Shown here: one piece after another, positions 26,637-64,000 of the stretch
How the letters are laid out: every line of letters starts with the position of its first letter
Numbering within the stretch: the first letter of the stretch is position 1
Source: Heliocidaris erythrogramma
Lineage: Eukaryota > Echinodermata > Echinoidea > Camarodonta > Echinometridae
Assembly: GCA_025617745.1 (NCBI GenBank)
Contig: CM046863.1
Span: forward strand, 5,268,015-5,332,014
Length of the DNA: 64,000 bases
Direction of reading: 5' to 3'
Notes under the pieces: model-generated
Seen by the model: only the letters and a program-made list of their open reading frames with translations
Database searches by the model: none
Told to the model about the DNA's origin: nothing
Position numbers and translations under genes: made by a program

Positions 26637-27736
26637 TTGAAACTTCGAGTTTTTCTGCTTCCAAACTTTTTGGACCCTATATCGGAACAATTTATCATTC
26701 AAGTCTATAAAGTTGAAAAACATTTACGGTCGGTTGACACTAAAAAGGCTTCAGGTCCAGATCAAATCCCACCTTGGATTCTTAAAGATTTCTCTCATAT
26801 TTTATGTGGACCAATTTGTTCAATTTTCAATGCCTCTATATATTGCTCAAGCATAATTATGTTCCTCCTATTTGGAAATCTGCAAACATTGTTACCATTC
26901 CTAAAGTCAATCCACCTGCACAGGAAAAATGATTTGCGGCCATCTCTTTGACCCCTGTGCTTGCTAAATTGTTAGAGAATTTTATTTACAATTGGTTGTG
27001 GAATGAATACTTACCTCATATTGATAAAAGCCAATTTGGCAGTATACCTGGTTCGTCAACAGTTTTAGCTCTTATTGATTTATGTCATAACTGGTACTTT
27101 TTAACTGATTCTAAAAAACAAGCACTTCAAGTTTTATTAGTAGATTTTTCTAAAGCGTTTGATCGAATTAACCATGAAATTATAATTGACAAACTTACTA
27201 GATTGGGTATAAATAGAGTTATTGTAAACTGGATTCAAGCTTTCCTATGTCATAGGAAACAGAGAGTGAAATTAGGTGATACCACATCAGAATGGTCTTT
27301 CATAAATGGAGGAGTTCCTCAAGGTACAAAACTTGGGCCTCTTTTGTTTATAATTATGTTAACTGATCTCCAACCGGTCTTACCCGTAGTTAAATACGTT
27401 GATGATACCACTGTTTATGATGTTCTAAAACCAGGTCAAAATGGATTACTTCAGGAATCTTTGAATGATATGATAAAATGGACTAGTGATAATTGCATGG
27501 CCATTAATCCAAAGAAAACTAAGCAGTTGATCATTAATTTTACTAGAAATGAGTATGATGTAAACTTGACAATGAATAATGAACATATTGAACAAGTTCA
27601 TGAAGCAAAATTATTAGGTGTTTGGATTAACGATAAACTTAACTGGGATACCCATGTTAACGATATTTATTCTAAAGCAGCAAAACGGTTATATTTATTG
27701 ATCCAACTTCGTAGGGCTGGCCTGTGCAAAAAGTGA
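26637..27736 (+). pseudogene. LINE reverse transcriptase (broken), plus strand
   Basis: Part of an APE-type non-LTR retrotransposon ORF2. The first piece (26,637-26,951) has KASGPDQIPPWILK, the RT finger region; the frame then shifts and the second piece (26,948-27,736, 262 residues) carries the RT palm. It shows DFSKAFDRINHE, GGVPQGTKLGPLLF and the catalytic YVDDTT at about residues 151-156 of the piece. Another frame change near 27,736 separates it from later coding at 27,740-28,100 (SVLEYACQV, LLESVQKRALRII). The endonuclease domain is missing, so the copy is 5'-truncated as well as frameshifted. It converges on the TRIM-like gene. Confidence 0.9.
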
Positions 27737-32916: not shown

Positions 32917-33168
32917 AGATAATATTGGATATTTATATAGCGCTCATATCCACCTATGGTGCTCAAGGCGCTCCAGTATTACCCTGGCTTTAGCCCAGCT
33001 GCCCTATAAGGCGCTTGAAAGCATTCAAGGAATAAATTCCTACCAGGTACCCATTTACTACACCTGGGTGGAGAGTGGCAAATGTAGATTAATGTCTTGA
33101 CAAAGGACATTAGTGCCGCGGCGGGACTCGAACCGCGAACCATGAGATCCACAGTCTGGTGACATATC
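32917..33168 (-). mobile_element. tRNA-derived SINE, body and B box (split by Gypsy insertion)
   Basis: On the minus strand a pol III B box GGTTCGAGTCC is present (33,124-33,134), inside a tRNA-like stretch. The body runs to a TATATAAATATCC tail near 32,930. The A-box half of the same SINE lies at 42,961-42,985, on the other side of the 9.8 kb Gypsy element. Joining the two flanks across the duplicated TATC gives an uninterrupted tRNA-like head. Confidence 0.75.
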
Positions 33169-33170
33169 TT

Positions 33171-33485
33171 TGGTGGTCGAGTACATTTATCATCAAATGT
33201 ATTACTTAAAATACCAGCTACCATCAGCACATTCCACTTACATACAGATCTTACCTTACATAAACTTGTGTATCCACACGAACGACGTCTCACTCCAAAA
33301 CTGCTCTCGCTCTCGTGATCCCACGTATATCCCGGCCTGTGTCGCCCTCTATCGTCACGTATGTGTACTGTGTGTCGTCATCATAGCTGTGTGTCGTCAT
33401 AGTTGTGTGTCGTCATAGCTGTGTGTCGTCATAGCTACCTGTAGCCCGCCCGCTCCTGTTATAGGCCGTTACATCGTATACAACA
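33171..33485 (-). repeat. Gypsy-1 3' LTR
   Basis: 315 bp, starting TGTTGTATACG and ending CACCA on the minus strand (TG...CA). It matches the right LTR at every position I compared. The shared sequence extends two bases further left (TT), and with those the flanking TATC repeats line up as a target duplication. Confidence 0.95.
33369..33434. repeat. Four 16 bp repeats inside the Gypsy-1 LTR
   Basis: CTGTGTGTCGTCATAG occurs four times with period 16, the first with a 3 bp CAT insertion. The other LTR has the same array at about 42,844-42,909. On the element's strand the repeats read TATGACGACACACAG, lie in the early U3 region and could act as enhancer units; this is inference. Confidence 0.8.
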
Positions 33486-33496
33486 TTCCCCCCGGT
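33486..33496 (-). promoter_or_regulatory. Gypsy-1 polypurine tract
   Basis: CCGGGGGGAA on the minus strand, immediately before the TG of the 3' LTR: the position of the plus-strand primer in LTR retrotransposons. Confidence 0.8.
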
Positions 33497-34153
33497 TGTC
33501 TCAAAAAGGCCGGGGGGAAGTCTCTTGTCCCCGTTAAATTATTAACATTTTAACATTCTTTCTTTTTTTTTTTAGTTGAAATACTCAAGAAATTCCCCAC
33601 AACATAACATTATACATCATTACATTTTCTTGATATAAATTTTTGTTCAGTTGAAATATTCATGAATTTCCCACAACATAACATTATGATTAAGTACTGC
33701 AATTATTACATTCTTACATTGTTTTTTCACATCCATTTTTTTTCTTCTAAATAATATCTTTAAAATTTCCATCAGCACACCTTATTCGCCCACGCGCGCA
33801 CATTTTTATATATATGTAGGTCGAATATGGCGGAGGGACTTGCATACCCCTGCAAATTTCAACACGTAAATCAAACAATCAATACATAGAATTTACTGAA
33901 TAGAATTTGCAATAAACAAACAAACGAACCATACGGAGAACACAAGTGTTCGAAAAACCACGGGGGTATGAAAACTCGTACCGGAGTATTTACAAAGCAA
34001 CTGTTATAACATGGTGTTCCATATATGGCATATAAAGTGAAACATAAATACATACATAAACATATATTGGGGTTGCAGGGGGGTGCAAGAGCTGGTATGG
34101 AAAAACGGAATAATAAACAAAACGCGCGCAACTTATCTGGCAAAATCCTGAAA
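33497..34153. other. Gypsy-1 3' untranslated region
   Basis: Non-coding interval between the TatD-like ORF and the PPT. It contains an imperfect duplication: AGTTGAAATACTCAAGAAAT at 33,574 and AGTTGAAATATTCATGAATT at 33,650, each followed by a CCCACAACATAACATTAT phrase. Confidence 0.6.
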
Positions 34154-35638
34154 TTAGCAGAGGCCATACAGCCTCATGCCGTTAGCGGCCGTCTCCCGCA
34201 TAAGACCGGTGAGAGAGACTCCCCGAATCCGGGCTACGACATAGCCGACATCTCCCAGGAATTCTGGGGTATGCCATGATTGTTGGGGGTGGACGGGCAG
34301 ATGTGGCGCATCTGTCTCTAGTAGCAGGCGATTGTCAGGGATGGCCCTGATTCCCATGGCCTGAGGGGACCTCGCACCCAGGTGCCTTTTAGCTAGTCCC
34401 GTCACCCCAAAGTATACATGGGGAAACAGGGCCATCCACTCATCCACAATGCTGGGAGTGCCCTCAAAACAATGGATGTGGATGCGTTGCTCTCGCGGGC
34501 AGTTGCTAGCAATCTTACGGCGCGCGATGGTATGCGCCGACCTGGAAACCGAGTCCGAACCGCCCTTGCCACTCACGGCACCTCGGAGATGGACCACCAG
34601 AACCCTCCCAGTTGACAGGCCCAGGAGGCGCGCTAAGAGTACCTCCTGCGCCGGCCAGCGAGATTCCGAGACAGAAAAATCCAGGCCAACCTCCGAAATG
34701 CCGACCACCCTGGGATTAGCCAGGGCAGCTACAAGGGCAGACCACTCCTCTGCCTTCACCCGATGGGCATGTTTAGGGTGGATGCCCACCGCGACGCCAA
34801 AAGAGCTGGGCAACCCCTCGATCACCCGGTCGAGATACCCGGAGTTCATATATGTGGAAGGGTCGCAATAATTCATGATCCCTCCGGTTACCTCCACCGG
34901 GTAGTCAGGCCTCCCGACGGGCTCACACAACCTCTGGGACCGCTTTACCCTGTCCAGATGGTAGTGACTGTCAAATCCCGTCAAGAGGGTGACAACCGGT
35001 CGTCGTGGGGGCATCGCACCTACTATGGGTAATCCCCTATCCAAGGTTTCCGTGGACGTGTGGGGCCGGGTATTACTACGGCCCCGACCACAGAAGCGCA
35101 TCGGGTCCGGAAACGGAGCCGAATTTTTGCGGCCCCATCCCCGGCCCGGGGACGATCGTGGAGGAGGAGGCCCCGGAAGCGGAACCGGGTCCATGTGTGA
35201 ACGTACCGCGTTACGTATCCGCTTCCGGCGCTCCCTCCGTTTTATTGTTCTTCGATTAATCCCCGACCGTGCCCGCAGGTTGACTACATTATCGGATTCT
35301 ACCGCCACGTCCCCCCTGATCTCGCCCGGTTCTAATGGCTCCAGGGAAGAGGGCAGCAGTGCGTCCTGCTGCGGGCCTCGGTCCAACCCTATGTCTGACT
35401 GCATGTCATTAGGCGAGGTGGCCACCCGCGCTGTATGCCATGGGTCATCCGAAGCCTGAGCCTCCCCATCCAACCAATCCTCCGGTGGAAGAGGGAAGTC
35501 ATTCCCCCCCAACCAGGAGACCGGCGGTGGAGGAAGGGCCAAGGGATCGGCCTCCCAAGAAATCGGCACCTCAGCCGGGGCAGCCTCCTCCTCACCTGAC
35601 GGATGATCCGGACCTGTGTTTTTCATGTCCCTGTTCAT
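34154..35638 (-). CDS. TatD-family metal-dependent hydrolase encoded by Gypsy-1 (ORF3)
   Basis: 494 residues. Residues 1-120 are acidic and proline-rich, and 129-142 are strongly basic (RRTIKRRERRKRIR), a plausible nuclear signal. Residues 221-494 form a TatD-type TIM-barrel domain: D223-S-H225 (FDSHYH), GIHPKHA at 285-291, E316 in SEVGLD, H350 in VVHLRG, H389 in IHCFEG, and D443 in LLETDAPHLP, with a C-terminal AANGMRLYGL resembling the family's last helix. These are the metal ligands of TatD nucleases, which act as Mg-dependent 3'-5' exonucleases and have roles in repair and apoptosis. The ORF sits after pol, where env lies in retroviruses, and a 3' splice site lies 10 bases before the ATG. 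A matching ORF in Gypsy-2 argues against a chance capture. The activity here is inferred from ligands only. Confidence 0.9.
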   Translation of the reverse strand: MNRDMKNTGPDHPSGEEEAAPAEVPISWEADPLALPPPPVSWLGGNDFPLPPEDWLDGEAQASDDPWHTARVATSPNDMQSDIGLDRGPQQDALLPSSLEPLEPGEIRGDVAVESDNVVNLRARSGINRRTIKRRERRKRIRNAVRSHMDPVPLPGPPPPRSSPGRGWGRKNSAPFPDPMRFCGRGRSNTRPHTSTETLDRGLPIVGAMPPRRPVVTLLTGFDSHYHLDRVKRSQRLCEPVGRPDYPVEVTGGIMNYCDPSTYMNSGYLDRVIEGLPSSFGVAVGIHPKHAHRVKAEEWSALVAALANPRVVGISEVGLDFSVSESRWPAQEVLLARLLGLSTGRVLVVHLRGAVSGKGGSDSVSRSAHTIARRKIASNCPREQRIHIHCFEGTPSIVDEWMALFPHVYFGVTGLAKRHLGARSPQAMGIRAIPDNRLLLETDAPHLPVHPQQSWHTPEFLGDVGYVVARIRGVSLTGLMRETAANGMRLYGLC

Positions 35639-35647
35639 AGCCTAAAC

Positions 35648-35668
35648 CTGCATAGGAAAAAACAGAAA
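35648..35668 (-). promoter_or_regulatory. Candidate 3' splice site before the Gypsy-1 TatD ORF
   Basis: On the minus strand the tract TTTCTGTTTTTTCCTATGCAG ends in AG ten bases before the TatD ATG and downstream of the pol stop. Gypsy-2 has the same arrangement. It would allow ORF3 expression from a spliced RNA. A weak possible donor, GAG/GTATTT, lies in the leader near 42,515. Confidence 0.6.
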
Positions 35669-35741
35669 GGAAGATACAGGTGGTTAAATCAAACAACACA
35701 ATTCTACTTACGACCCGCTACCGAATGTACAGAGACTCATA

Positions 35742-38700
35742 TCACCTGTTCCTGTTGCAAAACGGACAAAAATACTTGTCCATTTCGAAACTTTCCGCTA
35801 ATGTTACTCCTACACAACTGCCATGAAACCATTCGTTACATCCGTCACATTGTATCATTAATGATCCATCGTCGGGACCCTTACAAAAACAATAGACATC
35901 TTTGGGGGCACCCGTGAGGGCTTCACTCCTATCCGTGCACTTCTTGAGACGGTCGTGGTTTAGGGTAAAGGCTCTTCTCTTATAGGCCACCCTATACAAG
36001 TATGGTGATAGTCTTTGAGTGATGACCGCAGGACCTTTCCAGGGGGGAGACAACTTCCGTGACCTCCCCTTGGTTATGGCCGTATCTAAAATATAGACGC
36101 GGTCACCGACCTCGAATTGGCGTACATGTTGCTTTACGTCATAGTCACGCTTCATCAACCGCTGAGTCGACTTGAGGGCCGCCCGGGCTGACGCATGAGC
36201 ATGGCGCATTGCATTCGCCAGGTCTGTCGCATACTCGTCTATGGGCCTGTTGGGTGGGGATGTCGGAATGGTGAAAACAAGATCAGCAGGCAGGTTTACT
36301 TCTCGGCCGAGCATAAGCCTGTTTGGAGTAAATCCTGTGCTTCGGTTTACCGTGGCGCGTATGGCCCCTGCGATTTGAGGTAGGTACTTATCCCAATCCC
36401 TTTGGGACCTCCCAATGTAGCATCGCACCGCATCCAACAAAGTTCGATTAAACCGCTCCACTTGGCCATTGGCGGAAGGGCGGTAGGGAGTAGTCTTCGT
36501 CTTGTGGATCTGCAGGATACGGCACATGTTCTTGAATAACCTACTCTCAAAATTCCTGCCTTGATCTGTGAATATTTGGAAAGGATACCCGAACCGGCAG
36601 AAGAACTCGCACACCGCGGCATGAGCTGTACCTTCCGCCGATTGGGAGGGCAGGGGTACGCACTCCACCCACTTTGTAAATTGGTCAACCATCATCAGTA
36701 TGTGCGCATGTCCCTGTGCTGTTTTCGGCAAAGGCCCAATGAAATCCAAATGGACTCGCTCCATGGGAGCCCCCGCATGATAACTCTGCATAGGGTGCCT
36801 CCCATAGCGTGTGGCCTTTTTGTTCTGATTGCAGGTGGCACACTTACTGATGTACCCTCGAATATCCTCAGACATGCCGTACCAATAGTACTTGGACTTC
36901 AACTTTGCCCGAGTACGACTCACACCTGCATGCCCAGCCGAGGGTGGGTCATGATTGAGGCGGATGATGTTCTGTCGAAGTGACTGGGGGACTACAACGA
37001 CATTCACATCATCTCTCTTCCTCCAGATTATTCCCTCCCTCATGGTGAAGAGCTCTCTATTCACCCATAAGAACTTACCTTCGGGTGAAAGGAGAAACAG
37101 AGTTCCTTGGTCTAGTTCAACCTTATCTTTAAGCCACCTACATAGGTATCCGAGCTGCGGGTCCGCCTCTTGCTCGACTTTAATTAGATGAAGAGCGGGC
37201 AGACCATCAGAAGCTCCAGATGAGGCATCGTCTAACTGAACATTGTTTACGAAAAAGGAGGGCATACTCCCCTCATGGGAGATGTCCATGTGAGTAACAC
37301 AGAAATCTTCCTCGAGGGCAACACCTGCTACCTTAGTCCCACCCGTTAAAGGAACCACGTCGTCCACGACATCAACGAAGTGGGCCCAATCATTGTGTCT
37401 CTTGTAGCAGTAAGAGCACCCACCACAAGGCAAATCTTCCGGGTGGATGCCCAGACGGTAAGTCTCACAAAAGGGTTCACCGTCAGGCACCCGTGAAAGA
37501 GCATCAGCATTTTGATGATGCCTACCTGGTCGATGTTCGACAGTCATGTTATATTGACCCAATTCCTCAAGCCAGCGTGCCAGCTGGCCTTGGGGCTCCT
37601 TGAAATTAAGCAACCAAGTTAAACTCCCGTGGTCAGTCCGTAAGGTGAATGGTTTGCCCAGTAAATAATGCCTATATTGACGGGTAAACCTTACTACGGC
37701 TAACAACTCCCGGCGAGTTACACAATAGTTGCGCTGTTCAGGAGTAAGAGAAAGGCTGCCATAGGAAATTACTCTCTCCTCACCCTCCTGAACCTGCAAC
37801 AATTCAGCCCCCACGGCCGTCGCCGAAGCGTCGGTATCGAGAATGAATAGGTCAGTTGGATTAGGCAGAACAAGAACAGGGGCGGACGTCATCAGGCCCT
37901 TCACTTGCTCAAATGCCAGCTGGTGCTCTTCCGTCCAGCCGAACTTGTGCTTACCAGTGAGTCCATACAACGGCTCTGCCACCTGTGCATAGTTCTTAAG
38001 GAATCCCCGATGGTAATTGGCTAATCCTAAGAATTGTTCAACCTCCTTGGTCGAAGTAGGAGGGGGCCAGTTTACCACTGCCTTAACATGCTCCTCCTTG
38101 AGATGTAGCCCCTCGCCATCAACCTCTCTGCCCAGAAACTCCACCCTTCGTTTGAAAAAGGCACACTTTTTGGGCTTCAGTTTCAACTTATGGTCCCGGA
38201 AACGTTCCAAGACCAGCCTAAGGTTTTTTATGTGATCGCTGAAGGTGGTTCCCAACACAACCACATCATCGAGAAAGGCGAGGGCTATATCCCAGGTAAG
38301 ACCCCTTAGAACGAGATGCATCACACGTTGGAAAGTAGCCGGGGCATTGCACAACCCAAAACCCATGCGTGCGAACTCAAACAGCCCATGCTTTGTGACA
38401 AAGGCCGTTTTGTCCCGGTCTTCCTTCCTGATTTTAATTTGCCAATACGCCGAATTGGCATCCAGTTTAGAGAACCATTCATTACCGGCCAGAGTATCTA
38501 AACATTCTTCAATGCAAGGGAGTGGGTAGACATCCTTTCTGGTAACATTGTTTAGCTTCCTATAATCAATGCACCAGCGGACGCCTCCATCACGCTTTCT
38601 TACCAACACGGGGGCAGAAGCCCATTCTGACATGGAGGGTTTAATTACCCCAGCGGCCAACATCTTATTAAGATGAGCCCGTTCTTCCTGAACGAAGTTA

Positions 38701-39758
38701 AGGGGAGTTCGCCTCATTTTCTGTTTTATGGGTTGGGCGTCCCCCGTGTCGATAGCATGAGAGATCTCGGTAAAATTCCCGAGGTCAAACTCATCCCTTG
38801 CGAACACGCATTCAAATTCAATCAATAGATTCTTCAATTGTTCTTGCTGATCGGGGATCAGGTCGGTTATTGAACGCTCCCAGAGGTCCTGCAAATAAGA
38901 GGGTATGCTGGGAGAAATCCCAAAAGCACTGACCTTCCTTACCCCGATATCAGTAGGGTTACCCGAAGTGGGTTCCACTATAGAAACCACCCGAGCCTCT
39001 CCTAAGGTCTCACCCTTTCTTAGCTTCAGGCTAACCTCTGTGGGATTTATAACGTATACTGAAATGATACCCCCGGCTTCATGAAGAGAGCGAGGAATCA
39101 GTACAGGCATGGAGGGCTGGGGTTCTAACAACAATGGCCCAGAGGGCACAGCAACAATGCACTGTACCCTCCGCACCGACAGTGGCGGAACCCTAACCTC
39201 TTCCTTGACAGATACTTTACTAACATCCTGGTCCGCTTCCTCACGCTGTATAATGGGAATATCCTCACTGTTAAACGTTAGGATAGAATCCGAGATATTG
39301 ATGCGAGCCTCATATTTTCGTAATAGGTCGACCCCAAACAACATTTCATCTGTTATGGGAGCCACAAATACGGGCTCACTTATCACTTGTGATCCGATTC
39401 TAACGTCTATAGGTCCGACTACAAGACCATCCATCTTCATGCCCCGTCCAGCACCCTTAAGGACTACTTGCTTGAGGGTCGCTGGGCATGGTGTTAGACG
39501 TTTAAATACTTTGTCAGAAAGAATAGTGACTGCAGCTGCCGTGTCTAAGACTGCATTGATAGATTCGGCACCAATCTCAATCGCTATGTTTAGCATTGAC
39601 GTGGAGGAGATCCTGCATACCACCACCTCCAACTCCCCGGAAGGAGATGGGGCGGCAGCGCTCAGGGTTCGTTCCGAATCAATCTGATCATGTACCATTC
39701 CTGGTCGCTCTAGTATCGAGTCTGGCGGCCACGGTGGGTGGGACCAGGGAACATACAT
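35742..39758 (-). CDS. pol: Gypsy-1 Pol: protease, RT, RNase H, integrase, PHD finger
   Basis: 1338 residues, uninterrupted. Aspartic protease motif D72-T-A (LDTAAAVTIL). RT at about 365-550 with FLDD at 495-498 as the catalytic box. RNase H at about 635-755 with D641/D643, E684 and D709. A conserved cysteine cluster C778, C781, C784 follows. Integrase: zinc-binding H936, H943, C973, C976; catalytic D1005, D1065 and E1101, with 35 residues between the last two, as in retroviral integrases; a GPY/F-type module at about 1215-1265. The C-terminus is a full C4HC3 PHD finger (C1290, C1292, C1304, C1307, H1312, C1315, C1331, C1334). Y1289, M1301 and W1310 fall where H3K4me3-reading PHD fingers form their aromatic cage. 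The ATG at 39,758 may not be the true start: the frame is open upstream across the Gag stop and lies in the -1 frame relative to Gag, so a Gag-Pol frameshift product is likely. Confidence 0.95.
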   Translation of the reverse strand: MYVPWSHPPWPPDSILERPGMVHDQIDSERTLSAAAPSPSGELEVVVCRISSTSMLNIAIEIGAESINAVLDTAAAVTILSDKVFKRLTPCPATLKQVVLKGAGRGMKMDGLVVGPIDVRIGSQVISEPVFVAPITDEMLFGVDLLRKYEARINISDSILTFNSEDIPIIQREEADQDVSKVSVKEEVRVPPLSVRRVQCIVAVPSGPLLLEPQPSMPVLIPRSLHEAGGIISVYVINPTEVSLKLRKGETLGEARVVSIVEPTSGNPTDIGVRKVSAFGISPSIPSYLQDLWERSITDLIPDQQEQLKNLLIEFECVFARDEFDLGNFTEISHAIDTGDAQPIKQKMRRTPLNFVQEERAHLNKMLAAGVIKPSMSEWASAPVLVRKRDGGVRWCIDYRKLNNVTRKDVYPLPCIEECLDTLAGNEWFSKLDANSAYWQIKIRKEDRDKTAFVTKHGLFEFARMGFGLCNAPATFQRVMHLVLRGLTWDIALAFLDDVVVLGTTFSDHIKNLRLVLERFRDHKLKLKPKKCAFFKRRVEFLGREVDGEGLHLKEEHVKAVVNWPPPTSTKEVEQFLGLANYHRGFLKNYAQVAEPLYGLTGKHKFGWTEEHQLAFEQVKGLMTSAPVLVLPNPTDLFILDTDASATAVGAELLQVQEGEERVISYGSLSLTPEQRNYCVTRRELLAVVRFTRQYRHYLLGKPFTLRTDHGSLTWLLNFKEPQGQLARWLEELGQYNMTVEHRPGRHHQNADALSRVPDGEPFCETYRLGIHPEDLPCGGCSYCYKRHNDWAHFVDVVDDVVPLTGGTKVAGVALEEDFCVTHMDISHEGSMPSFFVNNVQLDDASSGASDGLPALHLIKVEQEADPQLGYLCRWLKDKVELDQGTLFLLSPEGKFLWVNRELFTMREGIIWRKRDDVNVVVVPQSLRQNIIRLNHDPPSAGHAGVSRTRAKLKSKYYWYGMSEDIRGYISKCATCNQNKKATRYGRHPMQSYHAGAPMERVHLDFIGPLPKTAQGHAHILMMVDQFTKWVECVPLPSQSAEGTAHAAVCEFFCRFGYPFQIFTDQGRNFESRLFKNMCRILQIHKTKTTPYRPSANGQVERFNRTLLDAVRCYIGRSQRDWDKYLPQIAGAIRATVNRSTGFTPNRLMLGREVNLPADLVFTIPTSPPNRPIDEYATDLANAMRHAHASARAALKSTQRLMKRDYDVKQHVRQFEVGDRVYILDTAITKGRSRKLSPPWKGPAVITQRLSPYLYRVAYKRRAFTLNHDRLKKCTDRSEALTGAPKDVYCFCKGPDDGSLMIQCDGCNEWFHGSCVGVTLAESFEMDKYFCPFCNRNR

Positions 39759-39802: not shown

Positions 39803-42046
39803 TTACTGATCGGACTGGGGACTCCCCGCCCCCTCCGATCTCGGTCCGTTTCCCTCCTCCGCGTCCCTTTCTTGGAAACCAACGACTCTTGCAGCCTTCT
39901 CAGTCTGCTCATCCCTTGGCCGGCCCGCCCTCGGGGCAGGACATTCCCTACTGAAATGCCCTAACTGTCCACAATTGTAGCACCCCTGGTTGGCTCTCAG
40001 CCTCACTACCGAGCGATCGGGGGTGGCTGAGTCTTGGCCAGACGTGGCCCTAAACTTGTACGGAGAATCCCTCCGAGCTTGTGGGCCACGACCTCTTACA
40101 CTAACTGTAAGTCCCCGGATGGAGCTGGCTAATCCATGCACTGTGGCCTGAAGGGCAGTGAGCTGGACAATCATAGTCTCGAGTTTGGTCTCTAGAGTAC
40201 CTACCCTGGATTCCACCCTGGTTTCTGCTGAAACAGCCCTCGGTGGAGGCGCGACCCTCTGAACACTAGGTTCCGGGTCATGGTCCACCGACAGTTGTTT
40301 TATTTCCTTCTTTGCGCCCTTGCCGCTGGAGGGACCTCTGATAGTCCTCTGTGTGTACTGGTACCACTTGTACCGTTCAAGCGCTATCTCCAGTGTGTTT
40401 GGCCTGCTATTCAGAACATACTGACCAGCATCCTTGTCTTGTGACCCCTGACAGAATCGGGCGACAATTTGTTCTTGTATGAACGCCTCCGGTAAACCGA
40501 GAAAAGCTTGTCCTGCCAGTGTCATGAGACGATCAGCCCACTGGACTAGCGTCTCTTCAACTTTTTGGGATGCCCCTTGGAACTGCATGCGAGTCACAGC
40601 GGGCTCCTCACGAAGGGAAAAACGCTTTTCCAATTTCTTCACCAGGGTACCGTAAGGCATATCCGGATCTCCCTCCGTAAGAAGGGCCATGTATTTACTG
40701 GCCTCCCCGTCTAATGACCAGCATAAATGATTCCTTCTTTGGGTGTCGTCCCAGTTACTCTCGTCGGCAAACAATTGAAACTTTGTAAGGAACGCCATCC
40801 AGCTTCCCGTACCACTATAGGTAATGCTTTTTGGAAGAAAAGCGGGTTTGCGTGGTGGCATTCTGACCGACGTCGGAATATTGTGGGTCTCCCTGTTCCG
40901 TCCCGCTCCCGCGTCCGGTCCCAAGGGTGACTCCCGAGTAACAGGTGGCGGACTCGGGAATACTGGGTAGCCCCGGGGGCCTGCTACCGGTGGGTAGTCA
41001 GCATGTCGGTACGCTGGCAGGACTGGAGGGGATGAGTATGGATATGTATGACCATGCATATACCCATACTGGTTGGGGAATTGTGCATAGGGATCATACC
41101 GCCCTCGAATCCCCGTTCCGCTAGGTACGGGAAATTCAGGCCGGAATTGGGGAAACAACTCCGGTGTAAAGTCCCTGGAGTTAAGGGGTTGTGAGGGCTG
41201 TCCAGCCCACCCCGATAGAAATCCACCCGGAACTGGGGGCTGAGGAAGATTTAGATGCTCCCCAGCCCGCTCTGGTGGGAACTCTGTCGGGACGGTGGGC
41301 TTGGGAAGGGGAAGAAATTCCCCCAACACTTCCCGCAAACATTCCCTCACCTCTGGTGAGGACTCTGTTGAGATGGTAGGCTTGGGAAGGGGAAGAAATT
41401 CCCCCAACACTTCCCGCAAACATTCCCTCACCTGATCTTTAAAATTTGGAGGCGATATAGCGCCTATATTCGAGTGCCGTTGCTCATTTAAATTTGTGCC
41501 TGCTTGTTTTTTACCCCCAGTTGGGCAGCGTATTCCCTCCCTTCTAGGGTCACCCGGGGGATAGTAGGTATCTGCCCCCCATGTGGATTTGGCTGGTTGG
41601 CCCAAATCCCTATCCTGCCTCCCCCCACCCATGGAAATAGCTGCCTGAGGTTGAACAACTTTGGGGGCCTTAGGAGCAGGCCGGTTACTATTCCCCAAGG
41701 TGAGGTTTAGAGGGGCTAGGTGATCTTCGGGCCCAACCCGCTGGGGGTTTGTGCGAGTTAAATCAAAAGCCGTTTTATCTCTCGGCTCATCCCCCAGTGA
41801 AAGATTAAGGCGACCCTCCGGTGGAGGAATATATGGCGCAAAGTCAAAATAAGAAAGTATTTGTTCCACATTATGTATATATGGCAATGTACCCAACGTC
41901 AGCGGGCAAATGTCGCTTGCTTCCCGCAAGTTGATAATTCGCTCCGCTAATGCCGGTCCAATGCCAGGAACCGTCATTAATTGTTGCCGTGTGCAATAGT
42001 TAATTTTTATCTTGCCCTCCATTTCTATAATTGAGGATCTAAACAC
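39803..42046 (-). CDS. gag: Gypsy-1 Gag with N-terminal helix-hairpin-helix and CCHC zinc knuckle
   Basis: 747 residues. Residues 13-70 (INYCTRQQLMTVPGIGPALA and following) match the helix-hairpin-helix DNA-binding fold of ComEA type, with the hairpin GIG at 28-30 and a second weaker half after it. A proline-rich linker follows with two near-identical 27-residue repeats (VRECLREVLGEFLPLPKPT, period 81 nt at about 41,295-41,430). The capsid-like region spans about 400-570 (FLTKFQLFADE; RMQFQGASQKVEETLVQWAD; FCQGSQDKDAG). A short coiled coil (TLETKLETMIVQLTALQATV) comes next, then the CCHC knuckle CYNCGQLGHFSREC at 689-702. It would form the particle and bind RNA. The ATG at 42,046 is the first in frame; a second lies eight codons on. 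Confidence 0.9.
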   Translation of the reverse strand: MFRSSIIEMEGKIKINYCTRQQLMTVPGIGPALAERIINLREASDICPLTLGTLPYIHNVEQILSYFDFAPYIPPPEGRLNLSLGDEPRDKTAFDLTRTNPQRVGPEDHLAPLNLTLGNSNRPAPKAPKVVQPQAAISMGGGRQDRDLGQPAKSTWGADTYYPPGDPRREGIRCPTGGKKQAGTNLNEQRHSNIGAISPPNFKDQVRECLREVLGEFLPLPKPTISTESSPEVRECLREVLGEFLPLPKPTVPTEFPPERAGEHLNLPQPPVPGGFLSGWAGQPSQPLNSRDFTPELFPQFRPEFPVPSGTGIRGRYDPYAQFPNQYGYMHGHTYPYSSPPVLPAYRHADYPPVAGPRGYPVFPSPPPVTRESPLGPDAGAGRNRETHNIPTSVRMPPRKPAFLPKSITYSGTGSWMAFLTKFQLFADESNWDDTQRRNHLCWSLDGEASKYMALLTEGDPDMPYGTLVKKLEKRFSLREEPAVTRMQFQGASQKVEETLVQWADRLMTLAGQAFLGLPEAFIQEQIVARFCQGSQDKDAGQYVLNSRPNTLEIALERYKWYQYTQRTIRGPSSGKGAKKEIKQLSVDHDPEPSVQRVAPPPRAVSAETRVESRVGTLETKLETMIVQLTALQATVHGLASSIRGLTVSVRGRGPQARRDSPYKFRATSGQDSATPDRSVVRLRANQGCYNCGQLGHFSRECPAPRAGRPRDEQTEKAARVVGFQERDAEEGNGPRSEGAGSPQSDQ

Positions 42047-42629: not shown

Positions 42630-42642
42630 ATCCTCGTCGCCA
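42630..42642 (-). promoter_or_regulatory. Gypsy-1 primer-binding site, serine tRNA type
   Basis: TGGCGACGAGGAT on the minus strand, three bases inside the 5' LTR. It is complementary to the CCA-terminated 3' end of animal tRNA-Ser(GCU), ATCCTCGTCGCCA, over 13 bases. The tRNA sequence is from general knowledge. Confidence 0.75.
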
Positions 42643-42645
42643 ATT

Positions 42646-42960
42646 TGGTGGTCGAGTACATTTATCATCAAATGTATTACTTAAAATACCAGCTACCATC
42701 AGCACATTCCACTTACATACAGATCTTACCTTACATAAACTTGTGTATCCACACGAACGACGTCTCACTCCAAAACTGCTCTCGCTCTCGTGATCCCACG
42801 TATATCCCGGCCTGTGTCGCCCTCTATCGTCACGTATGTGTACTGTGTGTCGTCATCATAGCTGTGTGTCGTCATAGTTGTGTGTCGTCATAGCTGTGTG
42901 TCGTCATAGCTACCTGTAGCCCGCCCGCTCCTGTTATAGGCCGTTACATCGTATACAACA
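42646..42960 (-). repeat. Gypsy-1 5' LTR
   Basis: 315 bp, read as identical to 33,171-33,485. It would hold the element's promoter. A reading frame across it (82 residues) is the same in both LTRs because the DNA is the same, and is not a gene. Confidence 0.95.
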
Positions 42961-42985
42961 TATCCACTAAACCACGACACCTCTA
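42961..42985 (-). mobile_element. 5' head of the tRNA-derived SINE split by Gypsy-1
   Basis: On the minus strand TGTCGTGGTTTAGTGGATA contains the A box TGGTTTAGTGG (42,964-42,974). It continues at 33,168 after the Gypsy-1 insertion. Confidence 0.7.
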
Positions 42986-47345: not shown

Positions 47346-47365
47346 TCAAATGCTTTAGACAGGTC

Positions 47366-47869: not shown

Positions 47870-47955
47870 GTTATATTCAGGTTCAGGGCAAGAGTTTTTG
47901 ATCTTATCTTGAACAATTTGGCCAACATTTACAAAAAAATTGTTAAAAGCATTTA

Positions 47956-56918: not shown

Positions 56919-56932
56919 CATCCCCCCATCCT
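56919..56932 (-). promoter_or_regulatory. Gypsy-2 polypurine tract
   Basis: GGATGGGGGGATG on the minus strand, just before the LTR start TGTAG. Confidence 0.65.
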
Positions 56933-57489: not shown

Positions 57490-58620
57490 CTAGCGGATCC
57501 AATCTTGGCGAGGGCGAACGGGCAGATAGGGAGCATCCGTCTCGAGAAGAAGGCGGTCATTAGGTATAGATTGAATTGCCAGGCGCTTAAGGTGAGCTTC
57601 AACCCCCCGATAGTAACTGATATTCCCAGTTATCCCGAAATAGACATGGGAAAACGCTGACATCCATTTGTCGACTATGTCCGGCGAACCCGTGAAACAA
57701 TGGAGATGTATTCTTTGGGTGGCCGGGCACAGTCGACGGATGGTATCGCGCGCCAACTTGTGTACTGATCTAGGAATTGGTTCTTCACCCTGTCTAGGGC
57801 CAGTGGAACCCCGCAGGTGGAGAACAAGGACCCTCCCAGTGGACAGTGCCAAAATCCGCTTAAAAAGTGTCATTTGGGCCATCCACTGAGAGTCGTCCGT
57901 GGAGTAATCTAAACCCACCTCCGAGATTCCAATGATCCTAGGATCTGCAAGGAGTGATCGCAGAATACTAAAATGACGCTCTGGCAAATCGAAAGCATGT
58001 TTGGGATGTATCCCCACTGCCACCCCATGCCCAGCAGGCAAACGGTCAAAGACGCTGTCAAGGTAACCGGAGGCCGAATATCGTGACGGGTCACAAAAGT
58101 TCATGACTCCCCCAGTCACCTCGACAGGATGCACAGGCGCGCCCAATGGCTTGTCTAATTTACCATCCTTCAAATATTTTTCCACCCTATCTGGGTGAAA
58201 ATGACTGTCAAAAGCTGGGGGCAGTGGTTCATCATCATCCCGTGGGAAAGATATTTCTTGCAAGGGCATTATTTTCTGCGGGGGAGACACTGCGAGTCCA
58301 CAATAGGATTCGATCATCGCCGCGGTAATTCCCCGGCCTCGTCCAACAGAGGCCACCGCCACATAGGATGGCCTAGCAAGGCCGCGACCCCGGCCGACCC
58401 CATGGGCAGCTACCTCTGCGAAAGAGGGCTTATTAGACAGCCCTGGAAACGGACCTGATCCGGCCAAAAGGCGCTCCCTTTTGCTCTTTTTGGCCCGCTT
58501 CTCGCGCTGTCTTCTTTTCTCATTGCGTCTCTTCCTCGCTGCTGCCTCTATGGTAGTATGCTTACCTTCAGCGGCTATGTCAGTCATCTGGGTAACCCCA
58601 GGTGGAAGTGGTTGTTCCAT
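57490..58620 (-). pseudogene. TatD-family hydrolase ORF of Gypsy-2, C-terminally shortened
   Basis: 376 residues. A basic stretch lies at about 29-50 (KRRNEKRRQREKRAKKSKR), then Gly/Arg repeats (GRGRG) and a TatD domain from about 135. Ligands are retained: D138 and H140 in FDSHFH, GIHPKHA at 203-209, E235 in SEVGLD, H268 in LHLRG, H307 in LHCFTG and D362 in LLLETDAPYLP. Compared with the Gypsy-1 protein it stops about 40 residues early, right after RQDW, losing the last helices with the conserved NGMRLYG-type segment. The DNA beyond the stop is the duplicated purine-rich tract, so the 3' end may have been replaced. An acceptor-like AG lies four bases before the ATG. Whether the short form is functional is unknown. 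Confidence 0.85.
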
Positions 58621-58623
58621 GAT

Positions 58624-58648
58624 CTAAAAAGGAAACACACGAGAAAAT
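58624..58648 (-). promoter_or_regulatory. Candidate 3' splice site before the Gypsy-2 TatD ORF
   Basis: On the minus strand TTTTCTCGTGTGTTTCCTTT is followed by TTAG and then ATCATG. It corresponds in position to the acceptor in Gypsy-1 although the surrounding bases have diverged. Confidence 0.6.
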
Positions 58649-58678: not shown

Positions 58679-59152
58679 TCACTTTCTTTTGCTACAGAGA
58701 GGACAAATCCACCTTACACTTTCTAACCCCTCTGACTCTGTTATGCCTACACATAAACCATGATACCAATTATCACACTGGTCGCACTGGATCATTAGAG
58801 AGCCGTCATCAGGTTTCCGGCAGAGGCAATAAACCTTGCCAGGAGTTCCTGCGACAACCTCACTATGATCTGTGCATTTCTTTATTCGGTCATGGTTCAA
58901 TGTGAAAATAGCCTTTCTGTAGGCTACTCGATACAGATACGGAGACAGCTTCTCCACGATGACTCCGGGCCCTTTCCAAGGGGGGCTCAGTTTCCGTGAT
59001 CTCCCCTTGATCCGGACCGTGTCCAGAATATAAACACGGTCATTCACTTCATATTCCCGAGTGTATTGCCTGACATCGTAATCTCGTTTCATCCGGCGCT
59101 GGGAAGATTTAAGCGCTGCTCGGCCGATATATGAGCATTGCGCATAGCACAA
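58679..59152 (-). pseudogene. Gypsy-2 integrase C-terminal module and PHD finger
   Basis: 157 open residues: KRDYDVRQYTREYEVNDRVY, a GPY/F-type module (PWKGPGVIVEKLSPYLYRV), then a complete C4HC3 PHD finger from VYCLCRKPDDGSLMIQCDQC through WYHGLCVG to ICPLCSKRK. Tyr before the first Cys, Met in LMIQC and Trp in NWYHG are kept, as in Gypsy-1. It is out of frame with the integrase core by a frame change at about 59,100-59,130. Confidence 0.9.
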
Positions 59153-59943
59153 GTCAAGTCCGCCACATATTCATCAACGGTCCTGTCCTGTGCTGGCAAA
59201 GGAACAGAGAATACGAGGTCAGCTGGAAGATTCACCTCCCGACCTAGCATAAGCTTGTTAGGGGTAAATCCAGTACTTCGATTTACTGTGGCACGGATAG
59301 CCCCAGAAATCTGTTGCAAGTGCTTATCCCAGTCTTTCTGAGATTTTGCCACATAACATCGCACTGCATCCATCAGGGTCCTATTCATTCGTTCACATTG
59401 GCCGTTGGCAGAAGGCCTGTAAGCCGATGTCTTGGACTTATGGATCTGAAGGATACGGCACATGTTCTTAAATAGATTGCTCTCAAAATTCCTGCCTTGA
59501 TCTGTGAATACCTGAAAGGGATACCCAAATCGGCAGAAAAACTCGCTCACTGCCGCATGAGCTGTTGTTTCCGCCGTTTGGGAAGGCAAGGGTACACACT
59601 CTATCCACTTGGTGAATTGATCCACCATAACTAATATATGCTCATTGCCTTGCTGGGTCTTCGGTAATGGACCCATAAAATCAAGATGCACACGCTCCAT
59701 GGGTACCCCAGCATGGTAATTCTTCATAGGATGCCTCCCATAGCGCGTGGCTTTCTTGTTTTGATTGCAAGTAGCGCATCTAACTATATAATTTCGGATG
59801 TCCTCAGACATGCCATACCAGTAGTACTTAGTCTTTAGCTTAGACCGAGTACGACTAACTCCAGCATGCCCTGCTGAAGGTGGATCATGATTCAGACGGA
59901 TTATGTCATGCCTCAGCGATTTGGGAACCACTAAGACAATCAT
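59089..59943 (-). pseudogene. Gypsy-2 integrase core
   Basis: 284 open residues with HDPPSAGHAGVSRTR and CATCNQNK (zinc-binding HHCC), DFMGPLPKTQQG, FTDQGRNFES and NGQCERMNRTL (catalytic D, D, E). It starts after a frame change near 59,940 and ends at another near 59,100, so it is one section of a broken pol. Confidence 0.9.
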
Positions 59944-59995
59944 CCCTCTTCCTCCAGATCACTCCTTCTCTCAGGAAAAATAGTTCCCTGTTTAT

Positions 59996-62812
59996 TCACA
60001 GAAACTTACCTTCTGGTGAGAGAAGAAACAGGGTACCTTCATCTATCTTTTCCTTGTCTACTAACCACTTACGTAAGGGCTCGAATAGTTGGTCCTTTTC
60101 CTGCTCCTTTTGCATTAATGTAGGAGAAGGCAAGTCCTCATCTGCCCCTACTGAGTTATCGACAACTATACTTCTTACCTCAATCTCCATGTGGGTCACG
60201 GGGAAACATTCTTCAACGGCCACGCTTGATACCTGCGGGCCATGTCCTAGTGGCACCACATCGTCCACCGAGTCGATGAAACGTGCCCATTCTTTATGCC
60301 TCTTAGTGCAATACGAACATCCGCCGCAAGGCAAGTCATGCAGTTCCACACCGAATCGATAACCTTCACACACCGGTCCAGTATCCGGAATGCGAGAAAG
60401 AGAATCGGCATTCGAGTGGTGTCTGCCCGGCCGATGTTCGATCTGCATATCATACTGCCCTAACTCCTCAAGCCAGCGAGCCAGTTGGCCTTGCGGCTCT
60501 TTGAAGTTTAGCAGCCACATTAAACTACCATGATCCGTTCTCACAGTAAATGGCCTACCAAGAAGGTAATGCCTATACTGCCTGGTAAACTGTACAACTG
60601 CTAAAAGTTCACGGCGAGTGACACAATAGTTTTTCTGCTGTGAAGAAAGGGATAAACTACCATAGGCAATAACTTTCTCCTCGCCATTTTGTACCTGTTG
60701 CAGCTCTGCATCGGTATCCAGAATGAACGGATCTGATGAATTTGGAAGTGCAAGCACAGGGGCGGAAGTTAACAGAGCTTTAATCTGCTCGAATGCAGAC
60801 TGATGAACATCTGTCCAGCAAAATGCATTCTTACCGGTAAGCTCATACAACGGTCCAGCCACATGTGCATAGTCTTTCATAAACACTCGGTGGTAATTGG
60901 CAAGCCCAAGGAACTGTTCTACTTCCTTAGTGCACGTAGGCGTAGGCCAGTCAACCACCCTCTGAATGTTTTCTTCCTTAAGATGCAAACCTGCACCGTC
61001 AACTTCTCTACCCAAGAATTCGACCCTTTGCTGAAAAAAGGAACATTTCTTGGTTTTCAGTTTCAGCTTATAATCTTTGAAACGTCCCAGGACTGCTCTT
61101 AGATTCTCGATATGATCTGAAAAAGATGTGCCCAAAACAAGAACATCATCCAAGAATGCAAGCGCTACGTCCCACGTGAGACCTCTCAAGAGCAGATTCA
61201 TCACACGTTGGAAAGTGGCCGGTGCATTGCACAGCCCAAATCCCATACGTACGAACTCATACAGCCCATATTTGGAGATAAAGGCTGTTTTGTCTCTATC
61301 CGAGTCTTTAACCTTGATTTGCCAGTAGGCGGCATTGGCATCGAGTTTCGAGAACCATTTATTGCCAGCCAAAGTATCAAGGCATTCCTCAATATCTGGT
61401 AGGGGATACACGTCCTTTCTGGTGACATTGTTTAGCTTGCGGTAATCAATACACCAGCGGACTCCTCCGTCTCGCTTACGCACTAACACAGGAGGAGATG
61501 CCCATTCCGACACAGAAGGTCGGATTACCCCAGCAGCCAGCATCTTGTTTAAGTGGGCACGCTCTTCCTGAACGAAGTTCAGGGGGGTCCTCCGCATCTT
61601 CTGTTTAATTGGCGAGGCATCGCCCGTGTTAATACTGTGAGTTATCTCATTAAAATCGCCGAGATCAAACTCATCTGTTGCGAATACACACTCATAAATG
61701 AGCAAAAGATTCCGTAATTCCTCCCGCTGCTCTGGTGCCAGCTCCTCGATGGAACGGTTCCAGAGATCCAATAGATGGGGAGGTATACTACTCGAGTCAG
61801 AGGTATCAGCCGTGCTAACAGTTCTTACTGTAGCATCTTCTGAAAGCTCTGTGTTACATTCTAATACTGAGACTTGTCCAATGATTTCACCTCTCCTAAG
61901 TTTACAGCTTGTGGAAGAGGGATTAATCATGTAAACGTCCGTCTCCTCATTTCCATCATGAAGACTACGGGGAACAAGCACAGACACTGGTAGAAAAGGC
62001 GACGGCTCCACCAAGAATGGCCCGGAGTTTAAGGAGCAAGTGCACCTCACCCTCCGTACCAAACAAGGGGGAACAACCACATCATTCTCCACACGCACCT
62101 GCGCCACATTCTCCGAATCTTCACAGTGAATGATGGGCAATTGCTCACCATTAAGACTCAAAATAGACTCTGGTATGTTTATCTTAGCTTTGTGCTTTCG
62201 TAGCAGGTCCGCGCCAAATAACATCTCATCAGCTATGGGAGCCACATATATATCTTCACTAAGTGTTTGAGTACCTAGTTTCAGATTTATCGGCCCCACG
62301 ACTATGCCATCCATTATCATATCTCGTCCAGCCCCTTTAAGTCTAACTTGCTTAAGGATAGGCGGTCGAGGTTGGATACGGCCAAATAGTTTATCGGATA
62401 TAATCGTGACAGCGGCTGCTGTATCCAAAACCGCAGTAGTTGATTCAGAGCCGGCTGTCAACTTGATATTTAATGTGGAAGTAGATACTATCACTTCCAC
62501 TTTCTTATTCATCCCTGGCCTACCAGTATTTGCCTGTGTATCTGGTGGCCATGGTGGGTCCTGGAAGGGTACCATCTTGGGAACCAAACGTGCTGCTGGA
62601 GCCTCAGAAACTTCAGAATTTCTCTGAGATTCCACACTGCCTGCCTGATTCCCATTGCCTACGGCCGCATTCACATTATCGGAGCTGGAGATGGGGATCC
62701 CTGATCGGATCGGGGACCCCCCATCTCCTCCGATCCTCTTTCGTTTCCCTCCTCCTGAAAGGACACTGCTCTCACCTGCCCGCCAACTGAAGGTATTCCT
62801 CGTCGGGGGCAA
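59996..62812 (-). pseudogene. pol: Gypsy-2 Pol: protease, RT, RNase H (truncated by nonsense codon)
   Basis: 938 residues. Protease LDTAAAVTII, RT with FLDDVLVLG, RNase H with FILDTDA and RTDHGSLMWL, then the conserved CGGCSYC cluster. Compared with Gypsy-1 about eight residues are missing right after the DTDA of RNase H. The ORF ends at an in-frame TGA where Gypsy-1 has Trp, about 30 residues before the integrase zinc-binding region. The N-terminus overlaps Gag by about 140 nt in the -1 frame, the same relation as in Gypsy-1. Confidence 0.9.
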
Positions 62813-64000
62813 ACTCTGCTAAAATGGCCTTGCTCCCCACAATTGAAACATCCAGAAAAACCCACCTTGGCAGGTGAGCGGTCAATTGTGGGTGGAGTCC
62901 GGCCAGTTATACGATCAGAAGTGCCAGGGATGCGGCCAGATGTAAATCTAGGCCGGTCACCAGCCCCAGGTCTTGATCCTGAACGATCTGGTGTGGCCGG
63001 CATCCTGGATGATCTGCTGGTATTACACCGATTCACCAAATCGAGGGTATTCTTGGATAGATCCATGCTGGCTTTCACCAAGGAATCCATATTGGATGCC
63101 CAGGATGCACTCTGTGATTCCAGTGCGGCAACTCTAGCTTCAATGCTAGACTTGCCGGCAGCTGTCTGTGGGGCGGTAACCTTTTGGATTTTGATGTCAG
63201 TTTCCGTCTCATCCATCGACAGCTGTCTCACATCCTTCCTAGACCTTGTGTTATGCAAATGCATAGACTTTTGGGTGAACTGATACCACTTATACTTTTG
63301 CAGCGCTAAATCTAGTGTACTGGGCCTAGAAATCAGGACATGGTGTCCTGCTTCTTTGTCTGATGCCCCTTGGCAGAATCGAGTCACTACTAGTTCCTGG
63401 ACATAGCTGTCCGGGAGCCCAATAAATGCTTGTCCCGCCAATGTCAAGACACGATCGGCCCATTTGAGGATGTCTTCGTCCACACGTTGCTGAGCAGACT
63501 GGAACTGCATCCTCATCACTTCTGGCTCGTCATGGAGAGCAAACCGCTTTTGAAATTTCTGAACAAGTTCAGAGTATGTCATCTGTTGGTTGCTCTCTCT
63601 GACAAGCGTCATGTATTTGCCGGCTTCTCTTTCAAGAGCCAGGCACAAGTGATAAATCTTGTCGTCCTCCGTCATGTGATGACGGTCGACAAACAACTGA
63701 AACTTGGCGTAGAATTCCGCCCAACCGCTCTTGCCGTCATAAGATAGTGTTTTTGGCAGCAAGACAGGCTTAGCTAGGGGCGTTCTATCAAAAATTCCAT
63801 GTCTCTCCGAGGAAATTGGAGGAACAAGTGTATCTGGAGTTAGCCGAGATACATGAGGTGGTTGGGGATACATGGGTTGGTTGGAACTAACCAGCGGGGC
63901 TTCAGTAACTTGAGGGGGATTCCCACACATCAAGTCACCTTGCCCTTGGGGTGGGCGCAAATGATCTACGGGTAATTGATACCCATGAGATTGATACCCA
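62671..64000 (-). CDS. gag: Gypsy-2 Gag (partial, N-terminus beyond window)
   Basis: At least 429 residues from 63,960, and the frame may stay open to the window edge. Capsid-like region: FYAKFQLFVDRHHMTEDDKI, RMQFQSAQQRVDEDILKWAD and FCQGASDKEAG, matching Gypsy-1 Gag. Then DVRQLSMDETETDIKIQKV, a short coiled coil (RVAALESQSASWASNMDSLV) and the CCHC knuckle CFNCGEQGHFSRVC. It ends at 62,671 after overlapping the start of Pol. Whether it has the helix-hairpin-helix N-terminus cannot be seen. Confidence 0.85.
   Translation of the reverse strand, partial: GYQSHGYQLPVDHLRPPQGQGDLMCGNPPQVTEAPLVSSNQPMYPQPPHVSRLTPDTLVPPISSERHGIFDRTPLAKPVLLPKTLSYDGKSGWAEFYAKFQLFVDRHHMTEDDKIYHLCLALEREAGKYMTLVRESNQQMTYSELVQKFQKRFALHDEPEVMRMQFQSAQQRVDEDILKWADRVLTLAGQAFIGLPDSYVQELVVTRFCQGASDKEAGHHVLISRPSTLDLALQKYKWYQFTQKSMHLHNTRSRKDVRQLSMDETETDIKIQKVTAPQTAAGKSSIEARVAALESQSASWASNMDSLVKASMDLSKNTLDLVNRCNTSRSSRMPATPDRSGSRPGAGDRPRFTSGRIPGTSDRITGRTPPTIDRSPAKVGFSGCFNCGEQGHFSRVCPRRGIPSVGGQVRAVSFQEEGNERGSEEMGGPRSDQGSPSPAPIM

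What the first reader, a model, noticed from the sequence alone, without database searches (positions are those of the whole stretch)
34154..35638. Ty3/Gypsy retrotransposons carry a TatD-family nuclease as a third ORF
The intact Gypsy-1 and the diverged Gypsy-2 (57,490-58,620) both encode, directly after pol where env would lie, a protein with the TatD metal ligands in order: D-x-H, E in EVGLD, H in HLRG, H in HCF, D in ETDAP. The two proteins are diverged yet keep every ligand, which suggests selection inside the element and not a recent host capture. Both have a basic N-terminal extension that could direct nuclear entry. TatD enzymes are 3'-5' exonucleases, so roles in trimming cDNA ends, removing tRNA primer or RNA remnants, or countering host DNA sensing are all possible. 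I do not know of a described LTR element class with this gene; novelty is unverified.
Basis: partly seen in the sequence, partly recalled or inferred. Interest (0 to 1): 0.95.

Follow-up and report, generated by a model that had tools for sequence, protein, structure and literature searches.

The report
Retrotransposon carrying its own TatD nuclease
Two related copy-and-paste DNA parasites in this window each carry, after their usual genes, an extra gene for an enzyme of the TatD family, which trims DNA and RNA ends, and this suggests that such elements can bring their own end-cleaning enzyme to the job of copying themselves.

Summary
On the minus strand, Gypsy-1 (identical LTRs, TATC target duplication, PBS, PPT, open gag and pol) encodes a 494-aa third ORF between pol and the 3' LTR. 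Gypsy-2 (69% identical over the RT-containing ORF) has the same gene in the same place. Both hit Pfam TatD_DNase (2e-31, 7.6e-31). The domain models as a TatD barrel (pLDDT 88.7). The metal ligands are kept, with the class II HxH motif. Between copies, synonymous change is near saturation while the protein is constrained.

New here: both ATGs lie 3-9 nt after a splice-acceptor-like site (11 of 2698 window ATGs qualify), and only one open codon precedes each ATG. The gene is probably expressed like env, from a spliced RNA. Corrections: Gypsy-2's pol is broken and its TatD lacks about 38 residues. Bdelloid LTR elements already have another 3' exonuclease (DEDDy) as ORF3, so this is a new variant of a known kind. 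No paper on a TatD version turned up in an open-licence library. Genome-wide copies, host, splicing and activity are untested. Best guess: it trims or clears reverse-transcription products.

The parts
33165..33168 (.). target-site duplication TATC (left)
   Evidence: matches 42961-42964
33169..33485 (-). Gypsy-1 3' LTR (317 bp; the next base is also shared)
   Evidence: 100% identical to 42644-42960
33486..33497 (-). polypurine tract before the 3' LTR
   Evidence: read from sequence; role inferred from position
34154..35638 (-). Gypsy-1 ORF3, TatD-family nuclease, 494 aa
   Evidence: PF01026 2e-31; AlphaFold2 and PDB fold match of residues 215-494
34163..34975 (-). TatD domain of Gypsy-1 ORF3 (residues 222-492)
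   Evidence: ligands
35213..35275 (-). basic stretch of the N-terminal extension (12 K/R in 21 residues)
   Evidence: NLS role inferred
35648..35670 (-). splice-acceptor-like tract ending in CAG, 9 nt before the TatD ATG
   Evidence: 14 of 16 pyrimidines; splicing inferred
35742..39758 (-). Gypsy-1 pol: PR, RT, RNase H, integrase, PHD finger (frame open from 39899)
   Evidence: Pfam; open frame
39848..39854 (-). heptamer GGGAAAC in phase for -1 gag-pol frameshift
   Evidence: function inferred
39803..42022 (-). Gypsy-1 gag, 739 aa from ATG: HHH motif, weak PNMA match (below cut-off), CCHC knuckle
42630..42642 (-). primer-binding site TGGCGACGAGGAT
   Evidence: read from sequence; the tRNA-Ser(GCU) match is recalled, not tested
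42644..42960 (-). Gypsy-1 5' LTR; holds donor-like AAG|GTAAGA at 42730
42961..42964 (.). target-site duplication TATC (right)
56921..56931 (-). polypurine-tract-like stretch of Gypsy-2; presumed 3' LTR begins at 56920
   Evidence: read by eye; 5' LTR outside the window, so unconfirmed
57490..58620 (-). Gypsy-2 ORF3, TatD-family, 376 aa, C-terminus missing (about 38 aa)
   Evidence: PF01026 7.6e-31; alignment
58624..58643 (-). splice-acceptor-like tract ending in TAG, 3 nt before the Gypsy-2 TatD ATG
   Evidence: 13 of 16 pyrimidines; splicing inferred
58679..62812 (-). Gypsy-2 pol, broken into three ORFs (PR-RT-RH; integrase; C-terminal part with PHD)
62671..63999 (-). Gypsy-2 gag, runs off the window

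Best explanation
The element is a Ty3/Gypsy LTR retrotransposon family with three genes: gag, pol (probably by -1 frameshift) and a TatD-family metal-dependent nuclease as ORF3. Shown: position, family, predicted fold, ligands, class II HxH type, presence at the same place in two diverged copies, constrained evolution. Inferred: ORF3 is made from a spliced subgenomic RNA, as env is in retroviruses, using the acceptor-like site just before its ATG; the basic N-terminal extension takes the enzyme to the nucleus or to nucleic acid; its origin is a host TATDN2-type gene, which also has an N-terminal extension and HxH. Most likely job: a 3'-5' nuclease that works beside RT and integrase on the element's own replication products. 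It would trim or destroy non-integrable cDNA 3' ends and left-over RNA or RNA-DNA pieces, so that clean cDNA integrates and stray DNA is neither used for suicidal autointegration nor sensed. This is like what the host enzyme TREX1 is reported to do for HIV-1.
For: TatD identity. Element anatomy: (LTRs, TSD, PBS, PPT). Same gene in the same place in a diverged relative. Constraint: TatD domain pN 0.308, pS 0.795 over 234 codons; differences at codon positions 1, 2, 3 are 84, 65, 151 (from rounded fractions; chi-square p 1.4e-9). Acceptor-like site in both: 11 of 2698 window ATGs have one with 13 or more of 16 pyrimidines within 10 nt. Only one open codon precedes each TatD ATG, so no fusion to pol. 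Class II: HxH against definitions in PMC10085689 (passages). [quoted passage not shown] TREX1 is said to enhance HIV-1 integration by degrading unprocessed viral DNA (PMC11259700, start of abstract in search listing). The SET complex is a barrier to HIV-1 autointegration (PMC2644782, title and start of abstract in listing; that TREX1 belongs to it is recalled).
Against: No activity, expression or splicing data exist. ORF3 evolves faster than RT-RH and integrase (pN 0.308 against 0.112 and 0.118), about like gag (0.359). Both copies have G after the HxR motif where all 46 bacterial TatDs in the alignment have D or E, which could change or weaken activity. Gypsy-2's enzyme is truncated. Only two copies were seen; seven scans found no relative in viral contigs. 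The presumed Gypsy-2 LTR gave only one weak donor by the pattern used. For the closest precedent, the authors found no significant departure from neutrality within genomes and no proof of activity (PMC5408684, passages). The TATDN2 origin could not be tested, as no metazoan TATDN2 sequence was at hand. TatDs differ in substrates (DNA, RNA, abasic sites), so the natural substrate is open.
Confidence: 0.5

Rival explanations
1. The enzyme acts on the host, not on the element's cDNA: as a TATDN2-like nuclease in the nucleus it removes RNA from R-loops or processes damaged or abasic DNA at transcribed or integration sites, or blunts a DNA-sensing response.
For: [quoted passage not shown] TatDs cut AP sites (PMC10085689, passages); basic N-terminal stretch in both copies; PHD finger on integrase points to chromatin.
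Against: No localisation or activity data; the host source is not proven. The element gains from this only indirectly.
Confidence: 0.25
2. ORF3 is a passenger: a host TatD gene carried along by the element without use.
For: Retroelements can transduce host genes (established knowledge); among the pol and ORF3 parts measured with over 200 codons, the TatD domain changes fastest; neutrality was not rejected for bdelloid ORF3s (PMC5408684, passage).
Against: Both copies keep every ligand and a long open frame at near-saturated synonymous divergence, and an acceptor-like site at the same place. A useless gene should decay over that time.
Confidence: 0.12
3. The two elements took up TatD genes independently, as DEDDy ORF3s were in bdelloid Juno and Vesta.
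For: TatD differs more between copies (48% identity overall, 54% in the C-terminal part) than RT (88% over the RT core). DEDDy ORF3 was gained at least twice (PMC5408684, passage).
Against: The two share features absent in all 46 bacterial TatDs aligned: G after HxR, an inserted P in the CDP stretch, S for G before the glutamate ligand, plus the same site, a basic extension and an acceptor-to-ATG arrangement. No host gene was available to exclude that these are host features.
Confidence: 0.1
4. ORF3 keeps the fold but is not an active nuclease; it serves as a nucleic-acid binding or structural protein.
For: G instead of D or E after HxR in both copies; fast evolution.
Against: The active-site residues D, H, H, E, H, H, D are kept in both copies.
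Confidence: 0.12

Closest known systems
Bdelloid rotifer LTR retrotransposons Juno and Vesta with DEDDy exonuclease ORF3 (PMC5408684, abstract and passages)
   Same: LTR element with a captured gene of the 3'-5' exonuclease kind as ORF3, key residues kept (DEDD changed to DEED), role unknown; the authors say that ORF3s in LTR retrotransposons are typically expressed from spliced messages
   Different: Nuclease is of the RNase D-like DEDDy fold, not a TatD barrel; hosts are bdelloid rotifers; the paper's main text holds no 'TatD'
TATDN2 and other class II TatD nucleases (PMC10085689, PMC12709183; passages)
   Same: TatD barrel, HxH motif; [quoted passage not shown]
   Different: Cellular gene; here it is the third gene of a retrotransposon, with G where the 46 bacterial TatDs compared have D or E after HxR
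Ty3/Gypsy (Metaviridae) elements with env as ORF3, e.g. Drosophila gypsy (recalled)
   Same: gag-pol-ORF3 order; likely spliced ORF3 mRNA
   Different: ORF3 is a nuclease; its only Pfam match at E up to 0.01 is TatD_DNase
TREX1 in HIV-1 infection (PMC11259700, PMC2644782; starts of abstracts only)
   Same: 3' exonuclease acting on retroviral cDNA that favours integration
   Different: Host enzyme of the DEDDh fold (fold recalled), not element-encoded

Membership tests
TatD nuclease family (PF01026) | significant match to the family profile | tested here: met
   2e-31 and 7.6e-31, above cut-off. NCBIfam TIGR00010 matches at 78.1 and 79.1 bits, below its cut-off of 206
TatD nuclease family (PF01026) | TatD TIM-barrel fold | tested here: met
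TatD nuclease family (PF01026) | metal ligands E, H, H, D plus HxH of class II | tested here: met
   E316, H350, H389, D443, H225, H227 in Gypsy-1, same residues in Gypsy-2
TatD nuclease family (PF01026) | metal-dependent 3'-5' exonuclease activity | not testable with these tools
   needs a bench assay
TATDN2 subfamily | class II HxH and N-terminal extension with NLS-like stretch | tested here: met
   against PMC10085689; the NLS is only a basic stretch, and this alone is not enough for membership
TATDN2 subfamily | groups with TATDN2 in a tree | not tested
   no metazoan TATDN2 sequence available; protein search switched off
Ty3/Gypsy LTR retrotransposon | LTRs, PBS, PPT, TSD | tested here: met
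   Gypsy-1:
Ty3/Gypsy LTR retrotransposon | pol order PR-RT-RH-IN | tested here: met
   Gypsy-1; no RT tree was made
LTR elements with exonuclease ORF3 (bdelloid Juno/Vesta kind) | captured gene of a 3' exonuclease family as ORF3 | tested here: met
LTR elements with exonuclease ORF3 (bdelloid Juno/Vesta kind) | DEDDy fold | tested here: not met
   ORF3 is a TatD barrel; so it is not a member of that ORF3 type

The most novel reading that the evidence does not exclude
A previously undescribed lineage of animal Ty3/Gypsy elements that carries and maintains its own TatD nuclease, expressed like env from a spliced RNA and used on its own cDNA: an element-encoded counterpart of TREX1. With the bdelloid DEDDy case it would show that retroelements have repeatedly recruited unrelated 3' exonucleases to the env position, so that end-trimming is a general need of reverse transcription.
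Probability: 0.4. Interest if true: 0.82.

Novelty: new variant of a known kind. Interest (0 to 1): 0.66.

Why it matters
If true, LTR retrotransposons have taken up 3' exonucleases of at least two unrelated folds (DEDDy and TatD) in the env position. That would point to a shared problem in reverse transcription or integration, such as bad 3' ends, left-over RNA, autointegration or DNA sensing, that elsewhere falls to host enzymes. It gives a single purified protein with which that can be tested, and a possible case in which a host repair enzyme (TATDN2 type) was turned into an element gene.

Tried and rejected
Readthrough or frameshift fusion of TatD to pol: rejected, because an in-frame stop lies just two codons upstream of the ATG (one open codon between) in both copies. 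Chance ORF: rejected by the Pfam, PDB and fold results. One-off insertion of a host gene into one copy: rejected by the second copy at the same site.

Led nowhere: the first AlphaFold2 model with only two sequences was poor (pLDDT 44.8). The patterns picked by the tool were narrow, so this is weak evidence of absence. tblastn in phage records gave 17 records, all under 60% identity; the ten listed are 24-31% identical. Rfam (gathering threshold) and ARAGORN found nothing in the window. VIA and Foldseek rows below the TatDs are mostly other amidohydrolase-type barrels and were not pursued.

Literature searches for a TatD gene in LTR elements. All papers with the terms were listed (0 papers; 4 papers: PMC5408686 opened at its one TatD passage, and unrelated; three seen as listing only, unrelated by title; TatD with gypsy: 3 papers, listing only, unrelated by title). 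Looser searches with capped lists: 20 of 1,339 listed; 20 of 5,279; 10 of 51, none of the ten with 'TatD'; 3 of 3. From these PMC5408684 (outline, abstract, passages) and PMC6238403 (passages) were opened. A search on PHD finger with gypsy integrase listed 5 papers, none opened. Only open-licence PMC papers are held; subscription papers and Repbase entries are not covered.

Of 80 bacterial loci fetched I put 46 into the alignment (chosen by ORF length and score). The scan required matches to IPDNRLLLE- or TDAPHLPV-like stretches, so conservation there is biased. dS is saturated or nearly so, and no exact dN/dS is claimed. The acceptor threshold and distance were chosen after seeing the sites.

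Full report
What was checked. Both ORFs are real and lie on the minus strand: 34154-35638 (494 aa) and 57490-58620 (376 aa). Pfam gives TatD_DNase at 2e-31 and 7.6e-31, with no other family at E up to 0.01. NCBIfam's TIGR00010 matches at 7e-22 and 3.5e-22, but at 78.1 and 79.1 bits it is below its curated cut-off of 206. By sequence, the 10 PDB sequences with E below 0.01 are named TatD, TatD-related, YcfH or TATDN3, or (3e2v) 3'-5'-exonuclease. The profile of both proteins lists 19 sequences up to E 10, of which three are Sm D3 chains at E 0.86-1.0, noise near the basic and glycine-arginine stretch.

The element. Gypsy-1 has two LTRs with an unbroken 318-base identical stretch. Taking the last shared base as flank, the LTR is 317 bp and a 4-bp TATC duplication flanks the element. 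A primer-binding site (TGGCGACGAGGAT; complementary to the 3' end of tRNA-Ser(GCU) by recall) and a polypurine tract are in place. gag (739 aa from its ATG) has an HHH motif, a PNMA match just below cut-off and a CCHC knuckle; pol has protease, RT, RNase H, integrase and a PHD finger. A GGGAAAC heptamer lies in the right phase for -1 frameshifting in both copies; Gypsy-2 has two further heptamers in that phase. Identical LTRs mean a recent insertion. Gypsy-2 is damaged: pol is broken into three ORFs (one in-frame stop, two frameshifts), its TatD ends about 38 residues early, and its 5' end is outside the window. tblastn found no third copy in the window.

Age and constraint. RT-RH and integrase differ at pN 0.112 and 0.118, protease at 0.238, gag at 0.359, the TatD domain at 0.308, the aligned N-terminal extension at 0.524, with pS of 0.65 to 0.95. 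Synonymous change is saturated or nearly so, so no precise ratio is claimed, but in the TatD domain third positions differ far more than second (151 against 65 of 234 codons). The simplest reading is that the gene was in place before the split and was kept. It changes faster than RT and integrase, about as fast as gag; this counts against a core catalytic role but fits a host-facing or accessory one.

Expression. In both copies only one open codon lies between an upstream in-frame stop and the ATG, so ORF3 cannot be a pol fusion. Right before the ATG is a pyrimidine tract ending in YAG: 9 nt before in Gypsy-1 (14 of 16 pyrimidines), 3 nt before in Gypsy-2 (13 of 16). 11 of 2698 ATGs in the window, both strands, have a site of at least 13 of 16 within 10 nt; these 11 include the two TatD ATGs, and the threshold and distance were chosen after seeing the sites. 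A consensus donor AAG|GTAAGA lies in the 5' LTR at 42730, one of five consensus donors inside Gypsy-1 including its copy in the 3' LTR. The presumed Gypsy-2 LTR has only one weak site by the pattern used; by eye CAG|GTTAGT also occurs there twice. Bdelloid authors state that ORF3s in LTR retrotransposons are typically expressed from spliced messages (PMC5408684, passage). Splicing here is inferred.

Mechanism. TatD enzymes are 3'-5' exonucleases, E. coli TatD acts on ssDNA and RNA, and several cut abasic sites (PMC10085689, passages). [quoted passage not shown] ORF3 shares class II HxH and a basic N-terminal stretch (12 and 14 K/R in 21 residues). I also recall, from no call, that TATDN2 has a C-D-P stretch and an HxHCF motif like those here; that is a lead only. 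TREX1 is reported to favour HIV-1 integration by degrading unprocessed viral DNA (PMC11259700, start of abstract). The best reading is a self-supplied 3' nuclease for cleaning or clearing reverse-transcription products; host-directed roles are the main rival.

Novelty. Searches of an open-licence PMC library for TatD with gypsy, or with retrotransposon and LTR, listed 0, 4 and 3 papers, none on such an element by title or passage; looser searches with capped lists showed none either. A different exonuclease ORF3, DEDDy, is known in bdelloids, where no significant departure from neutrality was seen within genomes and activity is unproven. So this is a new variant of a known kind.

Noticed in passing
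39848-39854 and 62743-62749: GGGAAAC heptamer in both copies in the phase expected for -1 gag-pol frameshifting.
   Followed up: partly
35757-35891 and 58694-58828: PHD finger at the C-terminus of integrase in both copies, where chromoviruses have a chromodomain (recalled); may steer integration to marked chromatin.
   Followed up: partly
41918-42016: Helix-hairpin-helix motif at the N-terminus of Gypsy-1 gag (PF12836, 1.2e-6), unusual for gag to my knowledge.
   Followed up: no
41270-41431: 81-bp tandem duplication (93% identical) inside Gypsy-1 gag.
   Followed up: no
26948-27736, 46791-49137, 52518-54549: Fragments of non-LTR retrotransposons; RT or endonuclease domains by Pfam in the four ORFs scanned, others by eye.
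   Followed up: partly
28472-30112: 546-aa ORF on the minus strand without a Pfam match at 0.001; by eye like a B-box/TRIM-type protein.
   Followed up: partly
57122-57413: Simple AAAAG-type arrays between the Gypsy-2 TatD stop and its presumed polypurine tract; the C-terminal TatD codons are missing there.
   Followed up: partly
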